From IMG/VR virus record IMGVR_UViG_3300010370_000297, positions 1 through 21,013 of that record: 21,013 nucleotides of DNA, one strand, 5' to 3'. How positions within the stretch are numbered: the stretch's first letter is position 1; each line of letters opens with the position of its first letter. This document shows positions 4,062 through 19,161 of this stretch, piece by piece. The position numbers and the translations under genes are program-made. The DNA comes from a virus. A model generated the notes under the pieces. It did not search any database. It saw only the letters and a list, made by a program, of their open reading frames with translations, and was not told the origin of the DNA.

Positions 4062-4123
4062 TAGCTCTCTGGCTAGCAGTAGCAGCTTTATTCTGGACAT
4101 TAATCTTATCTTTAGTCCTATGA
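4058..4123 (+). CDS. Possible 21-residue membrane peptide
   Basis: Starting at ATG 4058, inside the previous stop, this frame encodes only MIALWLAVAALFWTLILSLVL: one complete hydrophobic membrane span. Its TGA (4121-4123) overlaps the next ATG (4120). The fit of both ATGA junctions suggests a translated peptide. The frame is also open upstream to ATG 3965, which would give 52 residues with a charged cytoplasmic lead (MEKEEEDLLLNELRRIQQL) but a 97-base overlap with the previous gene. Either form could be real, or it could be a chance overlap. No family is recognised. Confidence 0.35.
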   Translation: MIALWLAVAALFWTLILSLVL

Positions 4124-4812
4124 AGATAGTAGCTCCTATTCCTGTTTATGGAAGGCTTCCTCTGGTGAAGCTCACAGTATCTAGGCTGCAATCATTTGGA
4201 GTAATTCCTATAATGATAGGCCATGAGCCAGAGGCTAAGCAGTTAGCTTTAGATCTAGCCTGTGACTGGATGTCATGCTCCAATGATCCTCTAGGGAATA
4301 AATGGAATGCTGGATTCCAGGCTGCAAAGTGCTATGATCCAGATGCTGTGATATTTATGGGGAGCTCAGACTGGTGCAGTGCTCAGTATATTGAAACAGC
4401 TAAAGAGTATCTTAATCAATATGGGATGCTAGGAATGTTAGGATGTCATTTTGCTGATGTAGCAGATGAGATAAGACTAGTCAACTGGAAGGGATACGGC
4501 ACAGGGCCTAGACATAATGAGCCTATAGGGATAGGAAGAGTGCTCAATAGAGAGCTTCTACAGAAGATTAATTATACTCCTTTTGACAGCAGGCTATCAT
4601 CAGGACTAGACTGGTCCATGTGGCTCAAAGCTATAGCTGCTAAAGTAGAGATAGGAATCATTCCTCCAGAAGATATACAGCTTCTATCTATCAGCACAAA
4701 CAGATGGAATAATAAACATAAGTTCCTGGATCACTGGTCAGGTAAGCTTCCTAGTGAGAAGCTAGATCCAAAGCTTCTGGATATAAACTTCTCAGACATT
4801 TACAAGCTATGA
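4120..4812 (+). CDS. GT-A fold glycosyltransferase-like protein
   Basis: A 230-residue protein with the features of a family-2-like (GT-A) glycosyltransferase. It opens with MKIVAPIPVYGRLPLVKLTV, typical of the nucleotide-sugar-binding strand and first helix. DPLGNKWNAGFQAA (56-69) matches the usual 'G...A.N.G...A' segment, and DAVIFMGSSDW (75-85) stands where the DXD metal motif usually is; here it is S-S-D-W. A later GLDWSMWLKA (162-171) resembles the acceptor-side E/D-D-W motif. There is no membrane segment. It likely transfers a sugar from a nucleotide donor to an unknown acceptor. It forms an overlapping three-gene run with the next two genes. Confidence 0.65.
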   Translation: MKIVAPIPVYGRLPLVKLTVSRLQSFGVIPIMIGHEPEAKQLALDLACDWMSCSNDPLGNKWNAGFQAAKCYDPDAVIFMGSSDWCSAQYIETAKEYLNQYGMLGMLGCHFADVADEIRLVNWKGYGTGPRHNEPIGIGRVLNRELLQKINYTPFDSRLSSGLDWSMWLKAIAAKVEIGIIPPEDIQLLSISTNRWNNKHKFLDHWSGKLPSEKLDPKLLDINFSDIYKL

Positions 4813-5549
4813 TGCAGGGATATATAAGTGAGTCACTTCAGGGCCTAGAGACAGGATTAATCTATAAATATGAACTGATAGGATATACAGATAATCATAT
4901 GCCAGTAGTATTCATGGGTATGTATCGAGAGGATGAATTCAACCTACTAAAACAGCATGAAGGACCAGCTACTGTAGTATATTTCGGATCAGATGCACTA
5001 GATCTAGATCCTGAGTGGGTAGAGACTCTGAGACAGCATGTGAACATAGGAGTATCTGAGCAGGTAGTGAATACTCTATATTCCAAAGGTATCAGAGCTG
5101 TTCACTTTCCATTTAATGCTGTAATCCCTGATAGATGGATAAATAAACCTTTAGGAGATAAAATATTCTGGTATTCTGGGAATGCTCCAGAGTATTATGG
5201 GCAGGAGTTCATAGATCAGATCAGAGAGAGATTGCCATATACTATCATCAGAGCAGGATCAGATACATTCACTAGAGAGCAGCTGGTAGATGTTTATGCT
5301 CAGTGCTTTATAAATCTGAGACTTACTCCTCATGATGGCTGTCCCAATACTAATATAGAGATGGGCCTAATGGGCAGGAGATCTATCTACAATGGAGATC
5401 TGCCATGCAGTATCAGATGGAATACTGTAGATGATATCTGCGAAAGCATAGAGAGAGAATATCTGAGAAGAGATAAAAATAATAAACAAATAACCACTAT
5501 TTATAAACAATTCGTAAATTATGAGAGAATGTCAACGCTGTTTGTTTAA
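4809..5549 (+). CDS. GT-B (GT4-like) glycosyltransferase
   Basis: A 246-residue protein that overlaps the previous gene as ATGATG/TGA. Residues ~115-200 look like the C-terminal, donor-binding half of a GT4-type transferase: KIFWYSGNAPEYYGQEFIDQ (118-137), TIIRAG (145-150), a helix with YAQCFINLRLTPHDG (163-177), then PNTNIEMGLMGRRSIYNGD (179-197), where E184 could be the conserved acidic residue. The N-terminal half is short for a full GT-B fold, so the enzyme is compact. It probably adds a sugar in the same glycan or modification as its neighbours. The stop lies 29 bases inside the next gene. Confidence 0.6.
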   Translation: MMQGYISESLQGLETGLIYKYELIGYTDNHMPVVFMGMYREDEFNLLKQHEGPATVVYFGSDALDLDPEWVETLRQHVNIGVSEQVVNTLYSKGIRAVHFPFNAVIPDRWINKPLGDKIFWYSGNAPEYYGQEFIDQIRERLPYTIIRAGSDTFTREQLVDVYAQCFINLRLTPHDGCPNTNIEMGLMGRRSIYNGDLPCSIRWNTVDDICESIEREYLRRDKNNKQITTIYKQFVNYERMSTLFV

Positions 5550-6582
5550 CAGCAACTTTGCAACTATAGGAGATGATCAGTGTGAATACTGTGATATTCA
5601 TGATGAGCTAGAGAAGCAATCACCTGGAGAGGAAGCACTGCTCAAAGTGATAGAGCAGATTAAAAGGAAAGGATCTAAGAATAAATATGACTGCATCATG
5701 GGAATATCTGGAGGTATAGATTCTTCAGCTCTGCTTTATGCTGCTGTAAAATATTGGAAGCTTAGACCTTTAGTGATTCACTTTGATAATAACTGGAATG
5801 CTCCAGAAGCTATGAGTAATATGGCTGGATTAATAGAGAAGCTCTCAGTAGATTGCATCATCTACCAGGTTAACAAGAATGAGTATGATGCTCTGAATGA
5901 TGCTTTCCTATGGGCAGGACTTCCAGATGCTGATATCCCTAATGATATAGCTATGACTAAGCTCATGTATGATACAGCTCATAAGTATGGCATAAAGTAC
6001 ATTCTGAACGGGCATGATTTTAGAACTGAAGGAAGTACTCCCAAAGGATGGACCTACATGGATGCAAAATATATTCAGGATGTTTACTATAAGTACTCAG
6101 GGCTAAAGCTTAAAAATTATCCTTTATTCACTTTCAAAGATCAGCTATTCTATGCCTGGAAAGGAATAAAAAACATAAGACCATTTCACTACAATATTGA
6201 CAGGGTAAAACTGGAGAATGAGATGAAGGAGCTGATCCAATGGAGAGACTATGGAGGGAAGCACTGTGAGAATGTATACACTGAATTCGTTGGCAGTTTC
6301 TTGCTTCCTAATAAGTTCGGCATAGATAAGAGGATAGTATACCTATCAGCACAGGTAAGATCTGGAATGATTACAAAAGAACAGGCTAGAATAATATATG
6401 ATGAGAAGCCTAACTTTGACACAAATAAAATCCCTGATGAGATCATTCAGAAGGTGACTGTTAAGCTAGGATCTAGAGGAGACTATGAGAGATACAACTT
6501 CAAAAAATACAGATTCTTTATCTGGATACTGACAAAGCTCAAAGTAGTGCCGTATACGTTTTATATTAAATACTGTAAGTGA
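5521..6582 (+). CDS. N-acetyl sugar amidotransferase (WbpG/PseA-like)
   Basis: A 353-residue PP-loop enzyme. An N-terminal metal-binding pair C4-x-x-C7 and C21-x-x-C24 is followed by the ATP-binding PP-loop GISGGIDSS (61-69), HFDNNWN (87-93), an NGHDFRTEG segment (163-171) and the characteristic RDYGGKHCEN...NKFGIDKR...RSGMITKEQA region. This order matches the WbpG/PseA-type family, which turns an N-acetyl group on a nucleotide-linked sugar into an acetamidino group. Bacterial members use ammonia from HisH/HisF-like partners, which are absent here, so the phage enzyme may rely on host partners. The start is fixed by the conserved early cysteines even though it overlaps the glycosyltransferase by 29 bases. 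Confidence 0.8.
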   Translation: MRECQRCLFNSNFATIGDDQCEYCDIHDELEKQSPGEEALLKVIEQIKRKGSKNKYDCIMGISGGIDSSALLYAAVKYWKLRPLVIHFDNNWNAPEAMSNMAGLIEKLSVDCIIYQVNKNEYDALNDAFLWAGLPDADIPNDIAMTKLMYDTAHKYGIKYILNGHDFRTEGSTPKGWTYMDAKYIQDVYYKYSGLKLKNYPLFTFKDQLFYAWKGIKNIRPFHYNIDRVKLENEMKELIQWRDYGGKHCENVYTEFVGSFLLPNKFGIDKRIVYLSAQVRSGMITKEQARIIYDEKPNFDTNKIPDEIIQKVTVKLGSRGDYERYNFKKYRFFIWILTKLKVVPYTFYIKYCK

Positions 6583-7461: not shown

Positions 7462-7502
7462 TATTCTCTTTTTTTTATAGATCACGAAAGGTTAGATTAA
7501 AC

Positions 7503-7534: not shown

Positions 7535-8740
7535 ATGTCAAGAATCATAAAAGGATATAAACCGCATGACAATCAGAGACTGATTCATGACAGCATTAAT
7601 CATGGAGAATATAAGTACTATGCTCTGAATATAGGCAGGCAATTCGGTAAGACCATGCTGGGAATAAATCAGATGCTCTACTGGGCCATCAATGATAGAG
7701 GCTGTAATATTGCATGGGTTACTCCAGTATATAAGCAGTCAAAGAAAGTATTCGATGAGATGGAGAAAGTAACCAGGGGAAGTGGCCTATTTGAATTCCA
7801 CAGGTCTGATCTCTGGATAAAAGGATTCGGATCTACTATTCAATTCTTCTCAGGAGAGAAACCTGATAATATCAGAGGGAATACATTTGACTATCTCATA
7901 GTGGATGAGATGGCTTTCACTAGAGCTGAGCTGTGGGATGAGGTCCTATCTGCTACAGTACTAGTCAAAGGTAAGAAAGTGATTTTCATCTCTACTCCAA
8001 AAGGAAGGAATCATTTTCATAGGATCTGTATGCAGCATAACTATGATGAGAGATATAAGTACTTTCATTTCACTAGCTTTGAGAATCCTCTGATAGATCA
8101 TCAGGATCTAGAGGAGAGGAAGAGATCCCTTCCAGATCATATCTTCAGACAGGAGTATCTGGCAGAATTCATAGATAATGCTTCTGGAATATTTAGGAAT
8201 GTGAAGGAGTGCATAGGTAAAGGAGAGAAAACGGGCAGGATGTATGGAGGCCTAGACATAGGCAGGGCAGATGATTACACTGTGCTCACTATCATGAATG
8301 ATAAAGGGGAGCAGGTAGCAGTGGAGAGATGGAGGCATGAAGAGTGGAGCAGGATCATTGATAGAGTAGCTGATGCCATAAGGAAGTGGAATGCTCTCAC
8401 ATTAGTGGAAGTGAATAACCAGGGAGATGTATTCTATGAGATGCTGCAGCAAAAGTGCAGAAACCTAGTAGAGCCATGGGTAACTAGCTCAGCCAGTAAG
8501 CCTGTGCTGATAGAAGATCTAGCTGTAAGCTTTGAACAGAAGGAGATCAGAATCCTGGATCATCAGTGGCTAGTTGACGAATTAGAAGCTTTTACCTATA
8601 TTTACAATGTGAATACTAGATCAGTAAAGTACTCAGCTCCTGATGGGATGCATGATGATGGAGTCATAAGCACTGCTCTAGCATGGCACTGCAGGAAGCA
8701 CTATAGTAAGAGAGGACAATATAAAATATTAAGAGCATGA
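7535..8740 (+). CDS. terL: Terminase large subunit (packaging ATPase-nuclease)
   Basis: A 401-residue protein with the complete terminase layout. The ATPase has a Walker A-like loop GRQFGKT (34-40), Walker B FDYLIVDE (118-125) with E125 as catalytic acid, and coupling motif STPKG (153-157). The RNase H-like nuclease has D241 in GGLDIGRADDY (238-248), E292 in VEVNNQGD (291-298) and D374/D375 in GMHDDGVI (371-378). It pumps DNA into the prohead and cuts the concatemer, together with the small subunit upstream. Length is normal to short for the family. All its arginines appear to be AGA or AGG: none of the six CpG I found in the gene forms a CGN codon. Confidence 0.93.
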   Translation: MSRIIKGYKPHDNQRLIHDSINHGEYKYYALNIGRQFGKTMLGINQMLYWAINDRGCNIAWVTPVYKQSKKVFDEMEKVTRGSGLFEFHRSDLWIKGFGSTIQFFSGEKPDNIRGNTFDYLIVDEMAFTRAELWDEVLSATVLVKGKKVIFISTPKGRNHFHRICMQHNYDERYKYFHFTSFENPLIDHQDLEERKRSLPDHIFRQEYLAEFIDNASGIFRNVKECIGKGEKTGRMYGGLDIGRADDYTVLTIMNDKGEQVAVERWRHEEWSRIIDRVADAIRKWNALTLVEVNNQGDVFYEMLQQKCRNLVEPWVTSSASKPVLIEDLAVSFEQKEIRILDHQWLVDELEAFTYIYNVNTRSVKYSAPDGMHDDGVISTALAWHCRKHYSKRGQYKILRA

Positions 8741-9426
8741 AAATTAATGTACCTAGCAGCATAAAGGATTGCAGGCCAGATCAATGTGTCAAGTGGCTGT
8801 ACTTAGCTCCCTTCATTCAACAGCAGAAGGATGCCTCACTAAGTAACCTGCTAGATTTTCAGGTCCAGCTGATAAGTATCTTCTCAGATCTGCCAGTAAG
8901 CAAAGTGAAGAAAGCTCATATAGATGATGTGCTTAAGATCTCAGAGCATTTATTCAATATGCTGGCACAATATCAGAAAGCAGAGCCTGCTGAGATCGTA
9001 GTAATAGAAGGCAAGAGATATAGATTTGAGAAGGATTTCTCACTGGTCAGCACTGGACAGATCATAGATCTTAAGCTGATAGAGAATGTCAATGATTCAC
9101 CTGCAGAAGCTCTGGCCATATGCTACATAGAGGAAGGATATGAATACTGCCAGGAGGATGATAGAGGAAGAGTGCTTAATCCTAATAAAGCTAGGGAAGA
9201 GATATTTAAGAGGAGCTTTCCTGGGGATGAGTTTATGAATTTCTTTAGTTTTTTTTTGCACAGTTACAAGGAGCGGAGGCTCGCTATATTGGGGATACAG
9301 CTGATGAGGATGAAGATGCAGGAGAGGAAAATCAAAGCGAGTCTATCAGAAACTCTGAATGGTTTAACTGGACAAAGATCACGATTAACCTGGCTAAAGA
9401 ACTTAACAAGCAAGTGGAGGAAGTAA
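8737..9426 (+). CDS. Probable tail assembly chaperone, zero-frame product
   Basis: Read without a shift, this gives 229 residues, overlapping the terminase stop by four bases (ATGA). Residues 1-172 look genuine: an N-terminal helical part (CRPDQCVKWLYLAPFI, then LISIFSDLPVSKVKKAHIDD), then IEGKRYRFEKDFSLVSTGQI and a Tyr-rich helical part, similar to small proteins I take to be tail assembly chaperones of gut and marine Bacteroidota phages. From residue ~173, after a run of nine T (9249-9257), the zero-frame sequence becomes basic and repetitive (LHSYKERRLAILGIQLMRMK) and looks non-natural, while the -1 frame looks genuine. As in lambda G/GT, both a short and a longer product may be made. The chaperone label is inferred from position and the frameshift. 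Confidence 0.6.
   Translation: MKINVPSSIKDCRPDQCVKWLYLAPFIQQQKDASLSNLLDFQVQLISIFSDLPVSKVKKAHIDDVLKISEHLFNMLAQYQKAEPAEIVVIEGKRYRFEKDFSLVSTGQIIDLKLIENVNDSPAEALAICYIEEGYEYCQEDDRGRVLNPNKAREEIFKRSFPGDEFMNFFSFFLHSYKERRLAILGIQLMRMKMQERKIKASLSETLNGLTGQRSRLTWLKNLTSKWRK
9249..9258 (+). promoter_or_regulatory. Slippery run of nine T: likely -1 frameshift site
   Basis: In the zero frame the codons read AGT TTT TTT TTG. T-TTT-TTT (9249-9255) and T-TTT-TTG (9252-9258) both satisfy the X-XXY-YYZ rule for a -1 tandem slip into the open frame. RNA polymerase slippage that adds one U would give the same frame. Only a weak 4-bp hairpin (GAGC 9271-9274 with GCTC 9279-9282) is seen 13 bases downstream. Confidence 0.6.
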
Positions 9427-9515
9427 TGAGCCAGCCATACATTAAGACTCTATTCTGGATGAATTTCTTTAAGATTAAATCAGAACAAGAATACATAAAT
9501 ATTAAGCATGGCTGA
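9249..9515 (+). CDS. -1 frame extension of the tail assembly chaperone
   Basis: The -1 frame opens just after a TAG (9246-9248) and runs 88 residues to TGA 9513-9515, overlapping the next ATG by eight bases. The sequence FAQLQGAEARYIGDTADEDE, then NSEWFNWTKITINLAKELNK and QVEEVMSQPYIKTLFWMNFF, has a natural mix of acidic linker and amphipathic helices, unlike the zero-frame tail. It has no start codon near its beginning, so it should be made by a shift at the T run. The fusion from 8737 would be 259 residues. A one-base homopolymer error in the sequence is the main alternative. Confidence 0.65.
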   Translation, partial: FFFAQLQGAEARYIGDTADEDEDAGEENQSESIRNSEWFNWTKITINLAKELNKQVEEVMSQPYIKTLFWMNFFKIKSEQEYINIKHG

Positions 9516-10035
9516 TCTCGATTTCTTAGATTCTTTAGGCTTATCTGATAGTGAGCTGCAGCAGCCAGAGACTGCTTATGATAAGCTTATTCTCAATATT
9601 GCGAATCAGGTAACTCAGGAATTTAGGGAATACATTCAGGCGAATGCTTCCAATACTGGAGCACTAGCACAGTCAGTAGTATACTTTCCTACTGGAGCAC
9701 TGAGCTTTGAGATACAGGCTGATGATTACTATAAGTTCCAGGATGAAGGAGTGAGTAGTATCAGTGGGAATAAGTTTCCATCTCCATATAGTTTTAAGCT
9801 TCCATACGTGACTAAGAATCATGCTATAGCTTTGACTAAATGGAAGGGATATGATATGAGCCATGCCTATGCTTCAGCATATGTAACTAAGCATAAATAT
9901 GGAATTAAGCCTAGAAATATCACTAACTCAGTCATGACTGATGAAGTGCTGGATAAGATAGCCTCAGATCTGGCAGAAGTGACTGGCTTAATGTTTACAG
10001 TTAAATTTGAAAAAAATACTCAGCAATGGCAGTAA
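9508..10035 (+). CDS. HK97 gp10-like tail or head-tail connection protein
   Basis: A 175-residue protein. The pattern ANASNTGALAQSVVYFPTGA (45-64), then EIQADDYYKFQDEGVSS (~68-84), SPYSFKLPYVTK and a C-terminal TKHKYGIKPRNI segment matches the general plan of HK97-gp10-like/tail completion proteins: 'tGaL..Sv', then 'I.a..Ya.fqdeGv', then a 'GI.pr.fi' helix. Members join or finish the tail, often next to chaperone and tail tube genes. The first 20 residues are acidic and low in conservation signals. The start overlaps the -1 frame stop by eight bases; the stop overlaps the next start by ten bases. Confidence 0.6.
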   Translation: MADLDFLDSLGLSDSELQQPETAYDKLILNIANQVTQEFREYIQANASNTGALAQSVVYFPTGALSFEIQADDYYKFQDEGVSSISGNKFPSPYSFKLPYVTKNHAIALTKWKGYDMSHAYASAYVTKHKYGIKPRNITNSVMTDEVLDKIASDLAEVTGLMFTVKFEKNTQQWQ

Positions 10036-15031: not shown

Positions 15032-17605
15032 ATGGCAAATAAGGAGGCAGTATTCACACTAAGAGTAAACACTGGTAATAGTGTTAAGGATGTTCAGACT
15101 TTTGATCAGAGCATTCAGAATCTCAATAAGGATATTGAGCAGGTGCAAAATACTGCCTCATCTGGCACAGGTATAGATACATTTGATGCAAAGCTTCAGG
15201 AGCTTAATTCTAAAGTAGAAGCTGGAGGTCTGACTATGAGACAAATGACTCAGGTCATGAAGGAATATCAGACTATTGCAGCTCAGGCTGGAATGGATTC
15301 TCCAATAGGGCAGCAGGCCATACAGAATGCAGCACAATTAAAGGATGAGATAGGAGATCTTAAAGCAGCTACTACAGCACTATCTTCTGATTTCGTAGGC
15401 CTCGATACAGCAGTGGCTGGTATTGAAACAGGAGCAGCAGTATTCCAGGGCTTTCAATCTGCAGTAGCTTTGACTGGAGTGGAAAGTGAGGCACTGATGC
15501 AAACTATGGTAAAACTACAGGCTGTGCAAGGTCTAGCGAATGCAGCTACTCAGATAGCAAATAATCTGAACAGTGATGCAATCCTGGGAATAAAACTAAG
15601 GACCTTCTATGAGAAAGCTTATGCTACAGTAGTAGGAGAGAGCACAGGAGCTATGAAAAATTTAAAGCTGGCTTTAGCAGCTACTGGAATAGGAGCTCTA
15701 GTTGCTGGAGTGCTGGCAGCAGTAGGAGCTTTTGATTCATTGATAGGATCTACTAGTGATTTATCTGCAGCAGAGCAAGCTTTAAAAGATACTCAGGATG
15801 ATTACAAGAAAGGAGCTACAGAAGCTGCTACAGTTACTGGAGAGGTAGCTTCTCAATTTGAACTAGCTAAGCAGGGAGTGATCTCTAAAGAAGAGGCGTT
15901 ATCATATTACAATGATACTCTAGGAGATTCATTTGGAAAGGCTACAAATTTAAATGATGCTGAGAAGCTCTTTAATGATAAGACAGAAACATATGTAAAA
16001 GCTGCAGGATTAAGAGCACAAGCTCAGGCATTGATAGCTAAAGCAGCAGAGGCAGGAGCAGAGGCAGTAGTACTAGAGAGTAAAAAAGTAGAGAAGCAAT
16101 CAGGATTACTAGGAGCTATCACTAATTCAATAGGAGCAGTTAAGGATAAGGGAGTGCAAATGGTCCGAGAGCAGGAGAAAGCTTTCCAGGATCAGGCTAC
16201 AAGTTTATTAAAACAAGCTGCTAGCTTAGAGCAATCTTCTGGAGTAGTATCAGAATCTACACAAAACTATCTTAAAAAAGCTGAAGATGCAGAAGCTAAA
16301 GCAGAGAAAAATAGAAAGCAGAGAGCTGATGCTGCAAAAAAGAGAGCAGAAGATGCTAAAAAAGCAGCAGAGGAAGCAGCAAAAGTAGAGAGAGAGAGAC
16401 TAGCAAACCTATTAAAGCTGGAGCAGGACTTCAGAGTGCAGCTTCAGGATATAGAGAATACTTATTTTGATAGTTTATTAACAGCAAAGGAGAGAGAAGA
16501 GAATGCTGTATATGATAAATATTTCACATTAATTCAACAGGCTAAACAATACGGTATAGATACCAAAACTCTAGAAGCTGCCAGGACTGCAGAACTTTCT
16601 AAAATTACAGAAGAATATAATAAAAAAGATCTGGAAGCTCAGAAGGTGATAGATGATGCTAAGCTAGAAAGTGCTAAAGCTTATAGGCTTCTATTTGCGG
16701 ATGAATATGAGCAGGAACTTATAAGCTTTGAAGATACTCAAAAGGAGCAAGCTGATGCATTAAATACAGCTTTAGCAAATAAGACTATTACTGAGGAAGA
16801 ATATCTAAAAGGACAGGAGAAACTAGAGGCAGATTATGCAGCTAAGATAGTAGAGATAAATGATAAAAAGAATAAAGCTGTAGAGGACAGCAATAAGACA
16901 GCATTTGATGCTAATATAAAAAATATTCAGGGGTATATAGATCAGGCACAGATAGCTCTAGATACTCTATCAGCATTCAATGATCTAGCTAATCAACTAG
17001 GAGAAAACAGAATAGATGAAGTTAACGCTCAGGCTGAGGCACAAACAGCAGCACTAGATAAGCAGCAGGAGGAAGAGCTATCAAATGCTAACTTGACTGC
17101 AGAGCAAAAGACAGCCATTGAGAAAAAATTTAATGATCAGAAGCAGGCTGTACTCCTTAAAGCTTTCAATGAAGAGGAGAGAATAAAGAAAGCACAATTT
17201 GAAAGAGATAAGGCTTTCAAAATATCTCAGATAGCTATAGATACAGCATCTGCTATACTTAAAGCTATTGCTACATATGGGCCTCCTCCATCTCCTCTAG
17301 GGATCTTTGGAATAGCATCAGCATCAGCTATAGGAATAGCACAGGCAGCAACTGTAGCAGCTACAAAATACAAAGGAGGTACTCCTCCATCAGCTTCTAG
17401 TGCAGGAGGTGGATCAGTGAGCACTGGAGCTAGTGCTTCTCAGTTCACTGCAGCGAATACTAATACTCAGCAAACTGCTCTAGGAGATATCATAGGAGGT
17501 GGATCTGCAGGAGGTGGAACTGTTTCAAAGGTATTTGTACTGGAATCTGATATCACTAATACTCAGCAGAAGGTGGCAGTCCAGCAGCAGCTATCAACTT
17601 ATTAA
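15032..17605 (+). CDS. Tail tape measure protein
   Basis: An 857-residue protein, the longest in the window. It shows the usual tape measure build: a helical N-terminal part, then LTGVESEALMQTMVKLQAVQ, then GLANAATQIANNLNSDA, and a hydrophobic segment near residues 212-235 (ALAATGIGALVAGVLAAVGA). Long coiled coils follow (Ala/Lys/Glu heptads such as KKAEDAEAKAEKNRKQRADA, around 415-450), then a second hydrophobic part near the end (AIATYGPPPSPLGIFGIASA), and a Gly/Ser-rich tail. Tape measures set tail length at about 0.15 nm per residue, so a tail of roughly 130 nm is expected if the whole protein counts. Long-tailed siphovirus form follows from this, as no sheath protein is seen. Its last 50 bases overlap the convergent minus-strand gene. 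Confidence 0.85.
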   Translation: MANKEAVFTLRVNTGNSVKDVQTFDQSIQNLNKDIEQVQNTASSGTGIDTFDAKLQELNSKVEAGGLTMRQMTQVMKEYQTIAAQAGMDSPIGQQAIQNAAQLKDEIGDLKAATTALSSDFVGLDTAVAGIETGAAVFQGFQSAVALTGVESEALMQTMVKLQAVQGLANAATQIANNLNSDAILGIKLRTFYEKAYATVVGESTGAMKNLKLALAATGIGALVAGVLAAVGAFDSLIGSTSDLSAAEQALKDTQDDYKKGATEAATVTGEVASQFELAKQGVISKEEALSYYNDTLGDSFGKATNLNDAEKLFNDKTETYVKAAGLRAQAQALIAKAAEAGAEAVVLESKKVEKQSGLLGAITNSIGAVKDKGVQMVREQEKAFQDQATSLLKQAASLEQSSGVVSESTQNYLKKAEDAEAKAEKNRKQRADAAKKRAEDAKKAAEEAAKVERERLANLLKLEQDFRVQLQDIENTYFDSLLTAKEREENAVYDKYFTLIQQAKQYGIDTKTLEAARTAELSKITEEYNKKDLEAQKVIDDAKLESAKAYRLLFADEYEQELISFEDTQKEQADALNTALANKTITEEEYLKGQEKLEADYAAKIVEINDKKNKAVEDSNKTAFDANIKNIQGYIDQAQIALDTLSAFNDLANQLGENRIDEVNAQAEAQTAALDKQQEEELSNANLTAEQKTAIEKKFNDQKQAVLLKAFNEEERIKKAQFERDKAFKISQIAIDTASAILKAIATYGPPPSPLGIFGIASASAIGIAQAATVAATKYKGGTPPSASSAGGGSVSTGASASQFTAANTNTQQTALGDIIGGGSAGGGTVSKVFVLESDITNTQQKVAVQQQLSTY

Positions 17606-18233
17606 GATAGTTAACTCCTGTTTTCACTTTAAAACCTTCACCAATAGAGAAGCAGCCGAAATCATTTAGGAATTTATCTGCCATGGATATCTTAGGATCA
17701 TTAAGCTTTAAATTCGTTCCTGGTATAGCTGGAATATCATATACATTCCCATACAGCGACTTTATAAAATGATTATGATGCTTCCACTCAATAGCATTAA
17801 ATAAGTCTATGAGCATCTCACTATTAAAGAGCATAGGCTGATGGCATTCAAAGTTAAGAGTATTGAATTCATTAAACTCTAGGAAGTGCTTTGTATTCTG
17901 GCAGGCTTCCTGATAATGTGGAGCATGAGAAGAATTCACTTCCAGCTTTCCATTGAATAAGGTCCTATGAGGATTAAAGTTTTTAGTGATGAAGAAATCA
18001 TCATTCATATAGATGAAATCTCCTCCTATCTCACGGGCAAATGTGAGAATCTTATCAGTGACATCTGCTCCCCTGTGAAATAGTGATTTCTTATGCTTAA
18101 AATTATCAGCCAGAGTGACTCTATCTCCAATGGTCCAGAGCTCAGCATCAGGATCAGCATTAAGTACTGACTGCATAGATAGATCTATGTCATAGTTATT
18201 CGAGGCTTTAATATATGGATAGACATATACCAT
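17556..18233 (-). CDS. Stealth-like sugar (phospho)transferase, minus strand
   Basis: The only minus-strand gene, 225 residues from ATG 18233. It has GDFIYMNDDFFI (71-82) and later FECHQPMLFN (128-137), plus NPHRTLFNG, the arrangement of the Stealth/CR2-type sugar-phosphate transferase domain: the 'F.Y.NDD.F' acidic motif and a 'H.P.l' motif. Such enzymes move hexose-1-phosphate units in capsule synthesis. The frame is open back to 18326, but the longer start would overlap the protease gene by 68 bases; ATG 18233 lies four bases after a -7 promoter on the same strand and begins naturally (MVYVYPYIKASNNYDID). It looks like a cargo (moron) gene set between tail and head modules, perhaps altering host surface or virion sugars. 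Confidence 0.6.
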   Translation of the reverse strand: MVYVYPYIKASNNYDIDLSMQSVLNADPDAELWTIGDRVTLADNFKHKKSLFHRGADVTDKILTFAREIGGDFIYMNDDFFITKNFNPHRTLFNGKLEVNSSHAPHYQEACQNTKHFLEFNEFNTLNFECHQPMLFNSEMLIDLFNAIEWKHHNHFIKSLYGNVYDIPAIPGTNLKLNDPKISMADKFLNDFGCFSIGEGFKVKTGVNYLNKLIAAAGLPPSAEY

Positions 18234-18237
18234 AGAA

Positions 18238-18245
18238 CAAATATA
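18238..18245 (-). promoter_or_regulatory. -7 promoter element for the minus-strand gene
   Basis: On the minus strand TATATTTG matches TAnnTTTG and ends four bases before the proposed ATG (18233). Transcription from it would begin at or next to the start codon, giving a leaderless or near-leaderless mRNA. No -33 element at proper spacing was found. The element lies in the 25-base gap between the divergent genes. Confidence 0.45.
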
Positions 18246-18258
18246 CATATTAAATAGT

Positions 18259-19161
18259 ATGCTTAAGAATTTACCTGTATATACAATCAGCATAGATCTG
18301 GAGAATCCAGATACTACAGTATCCATGAATTCAATGGTTCTAGATCCAGCACATGAGCTCAGCTTCCAGCTATTCCATAATCAGAAGAGATTTCATTTCA
18401 ATAAAAAAGAGAATGTGATTACTGGAGTAGCAATCTCTGCAGATACTCCTATCTATAGATATGATGATAAAAGCAGAGAGGAATACTATGTAGTATTCAC
18501 AAAGCAGGCTATAAAGGATATCATTTTTGATTATGCCAGGAGAGGGAACTTTAATAATGTTAACCTGGATCATTCAGCTAGGAAGGTAATAGATGATGCC
18601 TACATGATCCACAGCTACCAGATAGATGAGGAGAAAGGATTCACAGCTCCTGAGAGATTTAAGGATGTTAATGATGGAAGCTGGATAGTGAGTTATAAAG
18701 TTTCTGATGAGATCTTCGCTAAAGCAGAAGCTGGAGAGTGGACTGGTTTCTCAGTAGAGGGAGTATTTCAGATGGAAGAATCTGATATCAGCATAGAGGA
18801 TAAGATGTGGAGTGCTATTCATAAAGAGCTCACTGAGATCTATCATGAATTCGCAGGAATGCGGATCAGCTTTGACTATGATGATACACTAACTACAGCA
18901 AAAGGGCAGCAGATGGCTGCTAGATATATAGCTGCCAGAGATAATGTATTCATCATAACAGCTAGACAGCAATCTAATGGAGGACCAGTCTATGAGATGG
19001 CTAAGAAATTAGGCATTAAAAGAGAAAATGTATACTTCACTGGTGGCCGTGACAAGTGGCAAACTATAAAGAGACTCAGAATAAACAAACATATTGATAA
19101 TAATCAGGAGCAGATCGATCTAATTAAGGAGAATACTGATGCTGAGGCTATCAAATTTTAG
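18259..19161 (+). CDS. Prohead protease (XkdF-like) fused to a HAD phosphatase-like domain
   Basis: A 300-residue two-domain protein. Residues ~1-170 resemble the XkdF-like serine protease family: LPVYTISIDLENPDTTVSMN, ENVITGVAISADTPIYR (51-67), H105 in NVNLDHS, PERFKDVNDGSWIVSYKVSD (131-150), S165 in EWTGFSVEGVF. These proteases mature capsids, and scaffold and capsid genes follow. Residues ~200-300 look like a HAD-superfamily phosphatase: motif I MRISFDYDDTLT (D206, D208, T210), motif II VFIITAR (T234), a Lys-containing motif III near DKWQTIK (265-271) and motif IV HIDNNQ (D280). All four motifs are present, so the domain could be active. The head protease is well supported; the job of the HAD part is unknown. 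Confidence 0.75.
   Translation: MLKNLPVYTISIDLENPDTTVSMNSMVLDPAHELSFQLFHNQKRFHFNKKENVITGVAISADTPIYRYDDKSREEYYVVFTKQAIKDIIFDYARRGNFNNVNLDHSARKVIDDAYMIHSYQIDEEKGFTAPERFKDVNDGSWIVSYKVSDEIFAKAEAGEWTGFSVEGVFQMEESDISIEDKMWSAIHKELTEIYHEFAGMRISFDYDDTLTTAKGQQMAARYIAARDNVFIITARQQSNGGPVYEMAKKLGIKRENVYFTGGRDKWQTIKRLRINKHIDNNQEQIDLIKENTDAEAIKF

What the first reader, a model, noticed from the sequence alone, without database searches (positions are those of the whole stretch)
9246..9515. Nine-T run that joins two frames of a probable tail assembly chaperone
Seen: the -1 frame has a TAG at 9246-9248, then is open from 9249 to 9515 with natural protein sequence and no start codon near its beginning, while the zero frame past the T run looks like shadow sequence. 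T-TTT-TTT and T-TTT-TTG both fit a -1 slip. Known: lambda-like tail genes commonly use -1 frameshifting to make a long and short chaperone. Inferred: this is such a site, by ribosomal slip or by RNA polymerase slippage on U9. A homopolymer sequencing error is the alternative, though it too would make the -1 frame the true gene end.
Basis: partly seen in the sequence, partly recalled or inferred. Interest (0 to 1): 0.75.

Follow-up and report, generated by a model that had tools for sequence, protein, structure and literature searches.

The report
Nine-T frameshift makes two phage proteins
In a large, uncultured group of phages and in an isolated marine Nonlabens phage, a run of exactly nine T's makes one gene yield two proteins with different ends, probably forms of a tail-assembly chaperone, and natural selection appears to protect both readings of the overlapping DNA.

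Summary
The gene at 8737-9426, straight after the terminase, holds a T9 run at 9249-9257; the -1 frame is open 9249-9515 and ends inside the next gene's start. In 135 distinct relatives the run is exactly nine T every time, and the downstream domain lies in the -1 frame in 134. On a tree of 129 the nine T positions show no change, while neighbouring Phe codons change 11-19 times each. A second clade, including the isolated Nonlabens phage P12024S (about 14-16% identity), has the same T9 in another codon register. Duneviridae phages encode the fused protein as one ORF, which aligns end to end with that clade's -1 product (hhalign E 1.2e-17). So this is real recoding, not a sequencing error. For about 17-20 codons it is conserved too, so two alternative C-termini are probably both functional. 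Tail assembly chaperone is the best guess, but unproven: the gene is 5.5 kb from the tape measure gene and no known chaperone family was hit. Ribosomal slip (T TTT TTT) and RNA polymerase slippage on T9 remain about equally likely.

The parts
7535..8740 (+). terminase large subunit (TerL), overlapping the start of the frameshift gene by ATGA
   Evidence: phrog_2 E 1.5e-44 and Pfam Terminase_6N E 8e-17
8737..9426 (+). zero-frame ORF of the frameshift gene: shared N-terminal domain (about 171 aa) plus zero-frame C-terminal extension; 229 aa
   Evidence: N domain conserved in at least 280 IMG/VR contigs
9249..9257 (+). T9 run, the frame-transition site
   Evidence: exactly 9 T in 135 of 135 distinct relatives; 0 parsimony changes at all nine positions among 129
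9249..9255 (+). slippery heptamer T_TTT_TTT in the register for tandem -1 ribosomal slippage
   Evidence: sequence; the same heptamer occurs in the second clade in another T-run register
9249..9515 (+). -1-frame extension (88 codons and TGA), ending inside the start of the next gene (ATGGCTGA 9508-9515)
   Evidence: full-length homology to single-ORF proteins through the second clade
9258..9311 (+). dual-coded stretch: zero frame (LHSYKERRLAILGIQ...) and -1 frame (AQLQGAEARYIGDT...) both constrained
   Evidence: in codon columns 10-16 (9279-9299) there are 76 changes at zero-frame third positions against 14 and 14 at the other two phases; upstream 7-codon windows never have fewer than 70 third-position changes
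9351..9512 (+). C-terminal helical domain, -1 frame only ((N/D)SEWFxWT ... QPY ... WMN)
   Evidence: third-position-dominated substitution pattern in the -1 frame; helices predicted
9508..10035 (+). next gene, probable neck/tail-completion protein
   Evidence: phrog_29822 E 3.8e-4; that family's member P12024S gp42 matches 'tail completion or Neck1' at E 4.2e-4
15032..17605 (+). probable tape measure protein
   Evidence: by reading and by position: its counterpart P12024S gp49 matches tape measure family phrog_58 at E 2.2e-4; the window protein itself had no match

Best explanation
The gene at 8737-9515 is a recoded phage morphogenesis gene, most likely a tail assembly chaperone. A run of nine T's, kept at that length by selection, lets a fraction of expression move into the -1 frame. 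The un-shifted product is the N domain plus a zero-frame helical tail (229 aa). The shifted product is the same N domain plus an acidic linker and a helical, tryptophan-bearing C domain (about 260 aa). The shift is made at T9 either by RNA polymerase adding one U (U10) or by ribosomes slipping on U_UUU_UUU; both give the same protein. I put about 50% on polymerase slippage being the main route and 45% on ribosomes. By analogy with lambda gpG/gpGT, the abundant short form would coat the tape measure protein and the rare long form would recruit tail tube subunits. Shown by sequence: T9 conservation, the -1 extension, and constraint on both frames. Inferred: the mechanism, the ratio of products and the chaperone role.
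For: Exactly nine T in 135 of 135 distinct relatives, -1 domain in 134. Zero changes at T9 on a tree with 18.4 third-position changes per upstream codon. The same T9 and -1 arrangement in the homologous P12024S gene and its relatives, and 58 of 59 T9 in a sample picked without using the T run. Shifted products of the two clades align end to end: hhalign 98.5%, E 1.3e-14, 237 columns. Single-ORF homologues in Duneviridae and a Microcystis phage align with the clade-2 shifted product: 99.1%, E 1.2e-17, 238 columns. The -1 ORF runs into the next start codon in most relatives. N-domain homology between clades: E 1.4e-11. Both frames constrained after T9.
Against: No named tail assembly chaperone family is hit; the best named chaperone in the fold search is weak (E 0.12). 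The gene is not next to the tape measure gene. Duneviridae relatives make only the fused form, so two isoforms are not needed everywhere. No direct RNA or protein evidence.
Confidence: 0.75

Rival explanations
1. Pure -1 ribosomal frameshifting on T_TTT_TTT; the two further T's are kept only because both frames code there.
For: The heptamer stands in the right register in both clades although the T run starts at a different codon position. U_UU.U_UU.U is shift-prone in E. coli (PMC4066793). Lambda-type tail genes use ribosomal slips, sometimes without stimulators (PMC5009743). The flanking T's encode conserved residues in one or both frames.
Against: No conserved downstream RNA structure. Run length is nine in both clades with different flanking T's.
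Confidence: 0.45
2. Programmed RNA polymerase slippage on T9, adding one U to some transcripts.
For: Length exactly nine throughout. E. coli RNA polymerase slips on seven or more T, 5-10% insertion rescue at T7/T8 (PMC6260861). A conserved run of nine in homologues is the accepted signature of purposeful slippage (PMC1088944). No RNA stimulator found.
Against: The ribosomal heptamer is also present, and dual coding could explain the flanking T's. Slippage by the true host's or phage's polymerase is unknown.
Confidence: 0.5
3. Sequencing or assembly error: the true genome has T10 and one uninterrupted gene.
For: Homopolymers are error-prone.
Against: The same length occurs in 135 distinct relatives from many metagenomes, and in the isolate genomes of P12024S and P12024L. 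The frame beyond the run in both readings is under selection.
Confidence: 0.01
4. The -1 frame is a separate gene started internally (as annotated in P12024S gp39), not a fusion.
For: P12024S gp39 is annotated from an internal ATG at 23663.
Against: In the window the -1 frame has no ATG until about 9427, inside the C domain. -1 residues right after T9 are conserved. Homologues in other phages are single fused ORFs.
Confidence: 0.04
5. The zero-frame constraint after T9 is a nucleotide element (RNA or DNA) that tunes slippage, not a selected peptide.
For: In the second clade the 19 bases after the run (ATCATTTAGGNAACGACTT) are almost invariant.
Against: In the window's clade the changes fall on zero-frame third positions with three-base periodicity (76 against 14 and 14), and no consensus RNA fold is found.
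Confidence: 0.25

Closest known systems
Lambda gpG/gpGT tail assembly chaperones and relatives (-1 ribosomal frameshift; PMC5009743)
   Same: One gene, two products sharing an N domain; long form made by a -1 shift near the end of the short ORF; helical C extension; lies in a virion morphogenesis module.
   Different: Lies directly after TerL and 5.5 kb before the tape measure gene. The slip site is T9. The zero frame runs on for 43-84 codons in this clade with a conserved start. No sequence match to known families. Some relatives are plain single ORFs.
Programmed transcriptional slippage at nine A or T (IS elements with A9; Shigella mxiE/spa13; PMC1088944, PMC5009743)
   Same: Conserved homopolymer run of exactly nine joining two frames.
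   Different: A phage morphogenesis gene rather than a transposase or type III secretion gene; slippage not shown; a ribosomal heptamer is present too.
Nonlabens phage P12024S gp38/gp39 (JQ823122; phrog_32199 and phrog_38404)
   Same: Homologous N domain (E 1.4e-11), same place after TerL, T9, -1 C domain; full-length shifted products align.
   Different: About 14-16% identity, different codon register of T9, annotated as two unrelated hypothetical proteins.
Duneviridae single-ORF homologues (phrog_25418: Flavobacterium phages 23T and laban6-1, Cellulophaga phage Ingeline_1)
   Same: Same N-plus-C domain order over the full length.
   Different: No frame change; in-frame TTT TTT at the matching place in laban6-1 and Ingeline_1; no short isoform evident.

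Membership tests
Lambda-type tail assembly chaperone (G/GT) | Two products sharing an N domain through a conserved -1 (or +1/-2) shift | tested here: met
   At sequence level: T9 and -1 extension in 134 of 135 relatives; products themselves not observed
Lambda-type tail assembly chaperone (G/GT) | Gene lies between the major tail protein and tape measure genes, immediately upstream of the latter | tested here: not met
   Tape measure candidate at 15032, gene ends at 9515; same layout in P12024S. In Ingeline_1 the homologue is three genes upstream of the tape measure gene
Lambda-type tail assembly chaperone (G/GT) | Detectable sequence or fold similarity to a known chaperone family | tested here: inconclusive
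   No Pfam or PHROG chaperone match; PDB fold search empty; one annotated chaperone at E 0.12 in BFVD
Lambda-type tail assembly chaperone (G/GT) | Binds tape measure and tail tube proteins, absent from the virion, isoform ratio matters | not testable with these tools
   needs experiment
Programmed -1 ribosomal frameshift | X_XXY_YYZ slippery heptamer in register | tested here: met
   T_TTT_TTT at 9249-9255 and in the second clade
Programmed -1 ribosomal frameshift | Conserved downstream stimulatory RNA structure (common but not obligatory) | tested here: not met
   RNAalifold consensus of 45 sequences has no pairs
Programmed transcriptional slippage | Homopolymer run of conserved length, about 9 A or T, in homologues | tested here: met
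Programmed transcriptional slippage | Heterogeneous transcripts across the run | not testable with these tools
   needs cDNA sequencing

The most novel reading that the evidence does not exclude
A widespread lineage of tailed phages controls a tail-chaperone-like gene by RNA polymerase slippage on an exactly conserved T9. Both the un-shifted and the shifted C-termini are selected, so one stretch of DNA codes for two protein ends in overlapping frames.
Probability: 0.4. Interest if true: 0.7.

Novelty: new variant of a known kind. Interest (0 to 1): 0.55.

Why it matters
It adds a large recoded gene family, unannotated as such, to tailed phages: hundreds of IMG/VR contigs plus the isolates P12024S and P12024L, whose gp38 and gp39 should be read as one recoded gene. 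The T9 run is conserved across about 14-16% identity in two codon registers, while relatives have a plain fused ORF. That makes it a natural system for telling RNA polymerase slippage from ribosomal slippage and for asking when a phage needs two chaperone isoforms. Dual coding after the shift site means the un-shifted product is probably not just a truncated form.

Tried and rejected
PDB profile search: only short matches to repeat proteins, discarded. PDB fold search of the 229-aa model and viral fold search of the C part: nothing significant. RNA structure downstream of T9: none. tblastn of the window's N domain in cultured phages: none. Homologues in bacterial genomes: only the MAG contig L119 (59% identity) was found. 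Sequencing error rejected. Synonymous-shuffle test of zero-frame openness: only suggestive (P 0.01-0.2 per sequence), so zero-frame selection rests on the substitution-phase test. Phages RAP44, Harreka_1 and P12002S showed no clear homologue or T9.

Full report
Observation. The zero-frame ORF 8737-9426 begins in an ATGA overlap with TerL and contains nine T at 9249-9257 (AGT TTT TTT TTG). The -1 frame has TAG at 9246-9248, is then open to TGA 9513-9515, and ends inside ATGGCTGA, the start of the next gene. A first-order Markov model expects about 0.01 such T9 runs per window.

Conservation of the run. A protein search of IMG/VR gave 49 relatives, and profile searches found 280 or more contigs. 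Among 135 distinct sequences the run is exactly nine T in all, and the C-terminal domain follows in the -1 frame in 134; the exception, L218, has a further indel. Two other loci, L049 and L149, are cut by an upstream break before the run is reached. On a tree of 129 the nine T positions have zero parsimony changes. Upstream third codon positions average 18.4 changes, and other Phe codons change between TTT and TTC 11-19 times each. This rules out sequencing error and indicates strong selection.

The -1 product is the conserved protein. A fold search of the modelled 229-aa zero-frame product (mean pLDDT 74.7) found related viral proteins, including Nonlabens phage P12024S gp38. That gene also follows TerL, holds T9 at 23578-23586, and continues in the -1 frame into gp39. 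Its relatives in IMG/VR, down to 25% identity, all carry T9, except one T10 that keeps the same frame relation. In a sample drawn by the flanking DNA alone, 58 of 59 had T9. N domains of the two clades match at E 1.4e-11; full shifted products match over 237 columns at 98.5%, E 1.3e-14. Phages 23T, 2A, FPSV-D15, laban6-1, Ingeline_1, Leef_1 and a Microcystis phage encode homologues as one ORF. These align end to end with the clade-2 shifted product at 99.1%, E 1.2e-17. The match of these single ORFs to the window's own clade is weak by itself (16%, E 3.6e-4), so that link runs through clade 2. In laban6-1, Ingeline_1 and the Microcystis phage the matching place reads TTT TTT in frame.

Dual coding. 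Counting changes by phase, codon columns 10-16 after the run (window 9279-9299) have 76 changes at -1 first positions (zero-frame third positions) but only 14 and 14 at the other two. No upstream 7-codon window has fewer than 70 third-position changes. A Tyr codon in this stretch is TAT in all 129, while a Tyr codon further on switches between TAT and TAC 24 times. The zero-frame peptide (R-x-L/D-A-I-L-G-I-Q) is therefore constrained, while -1 residues such as E, R and Y are conserved too. Beyond about column 42 the pattern is that of -1 coding only. In the second clade about 20 bases after the run are nearly frozen in both frames. The un-shifted product thus probably has its own functional end; a nucleotide-level element is the alternative.

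Mechanism. Both clades contain the ribosomal heptamer T_TTT_TTT in register, and that motif is shift-prone in E. coli. Both also have a run of exactly nine, the length associated with programmed polymerase slippage, and E. coli polymerase slips measurably from seven T upward. No downstream RNA structure is conserved. The two T's outside the heptamer can be explained by coding constraints, so sequence alone does not decide; I lean slightly to polymerase slippage, possibly with both acting.

Identity. A -1 shift giving two isoforms, a helical C extension, and a place in the head-tail module next to a neck/tail-completion gene fit a tail assembly chaperone. Against it: no family match, distance from the tape measure gene, and single-ORF relatives. 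It works like a G/GT gene; membership is not established.

Prior knowledge. The searched open-access library returned no paper on a frameshifted tail chaperone in flavobacterial phages; P12024S gp38 and gp39 are annotated as separate hypothetical proteins.

Noticed in passing
window 7469-7476: A T8 run stands just upstream of TerL; G001 has a T8 run at 16811, just before its own TerL. Possibly part of a terminator or another regulatory element.
   Followed up: no
L277 (Flavobacterium phage 6H) 10352-10927: The 6H homologue is a disrupted copy of the ORF that is intact in phages 23T, 2A and FPSV-D15; sequencing error or real change not decided.
   Followed up: partly
window 18259-19161: A head maturation protease appears fused to a HAD/5'-nucleotidase-like domain; in G001 a similar HAD-like ORF is separate (L272 15842-16252).
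   Followed up: no
window 4120-6582: Two glycosyltransferase-like ORFs and an N-acetyl sugar amidotransferase-like ORF, judged by reading the translations, lie before TerL and are kept in G001; possible surface-glycan changes.
   Followed up: no
L276 23663-23830: P12024S gp39 is annotated from an internal ATG; it is the -1-frame end of gp38.
   Followed up: yes
window 17556-18326, minus strand: A 256-aa ORF on the opposite strand sits between the tape measure and protease genes; a similar minus-strand ORF is in G001 (L273 10176-10817).
   Followed up: no
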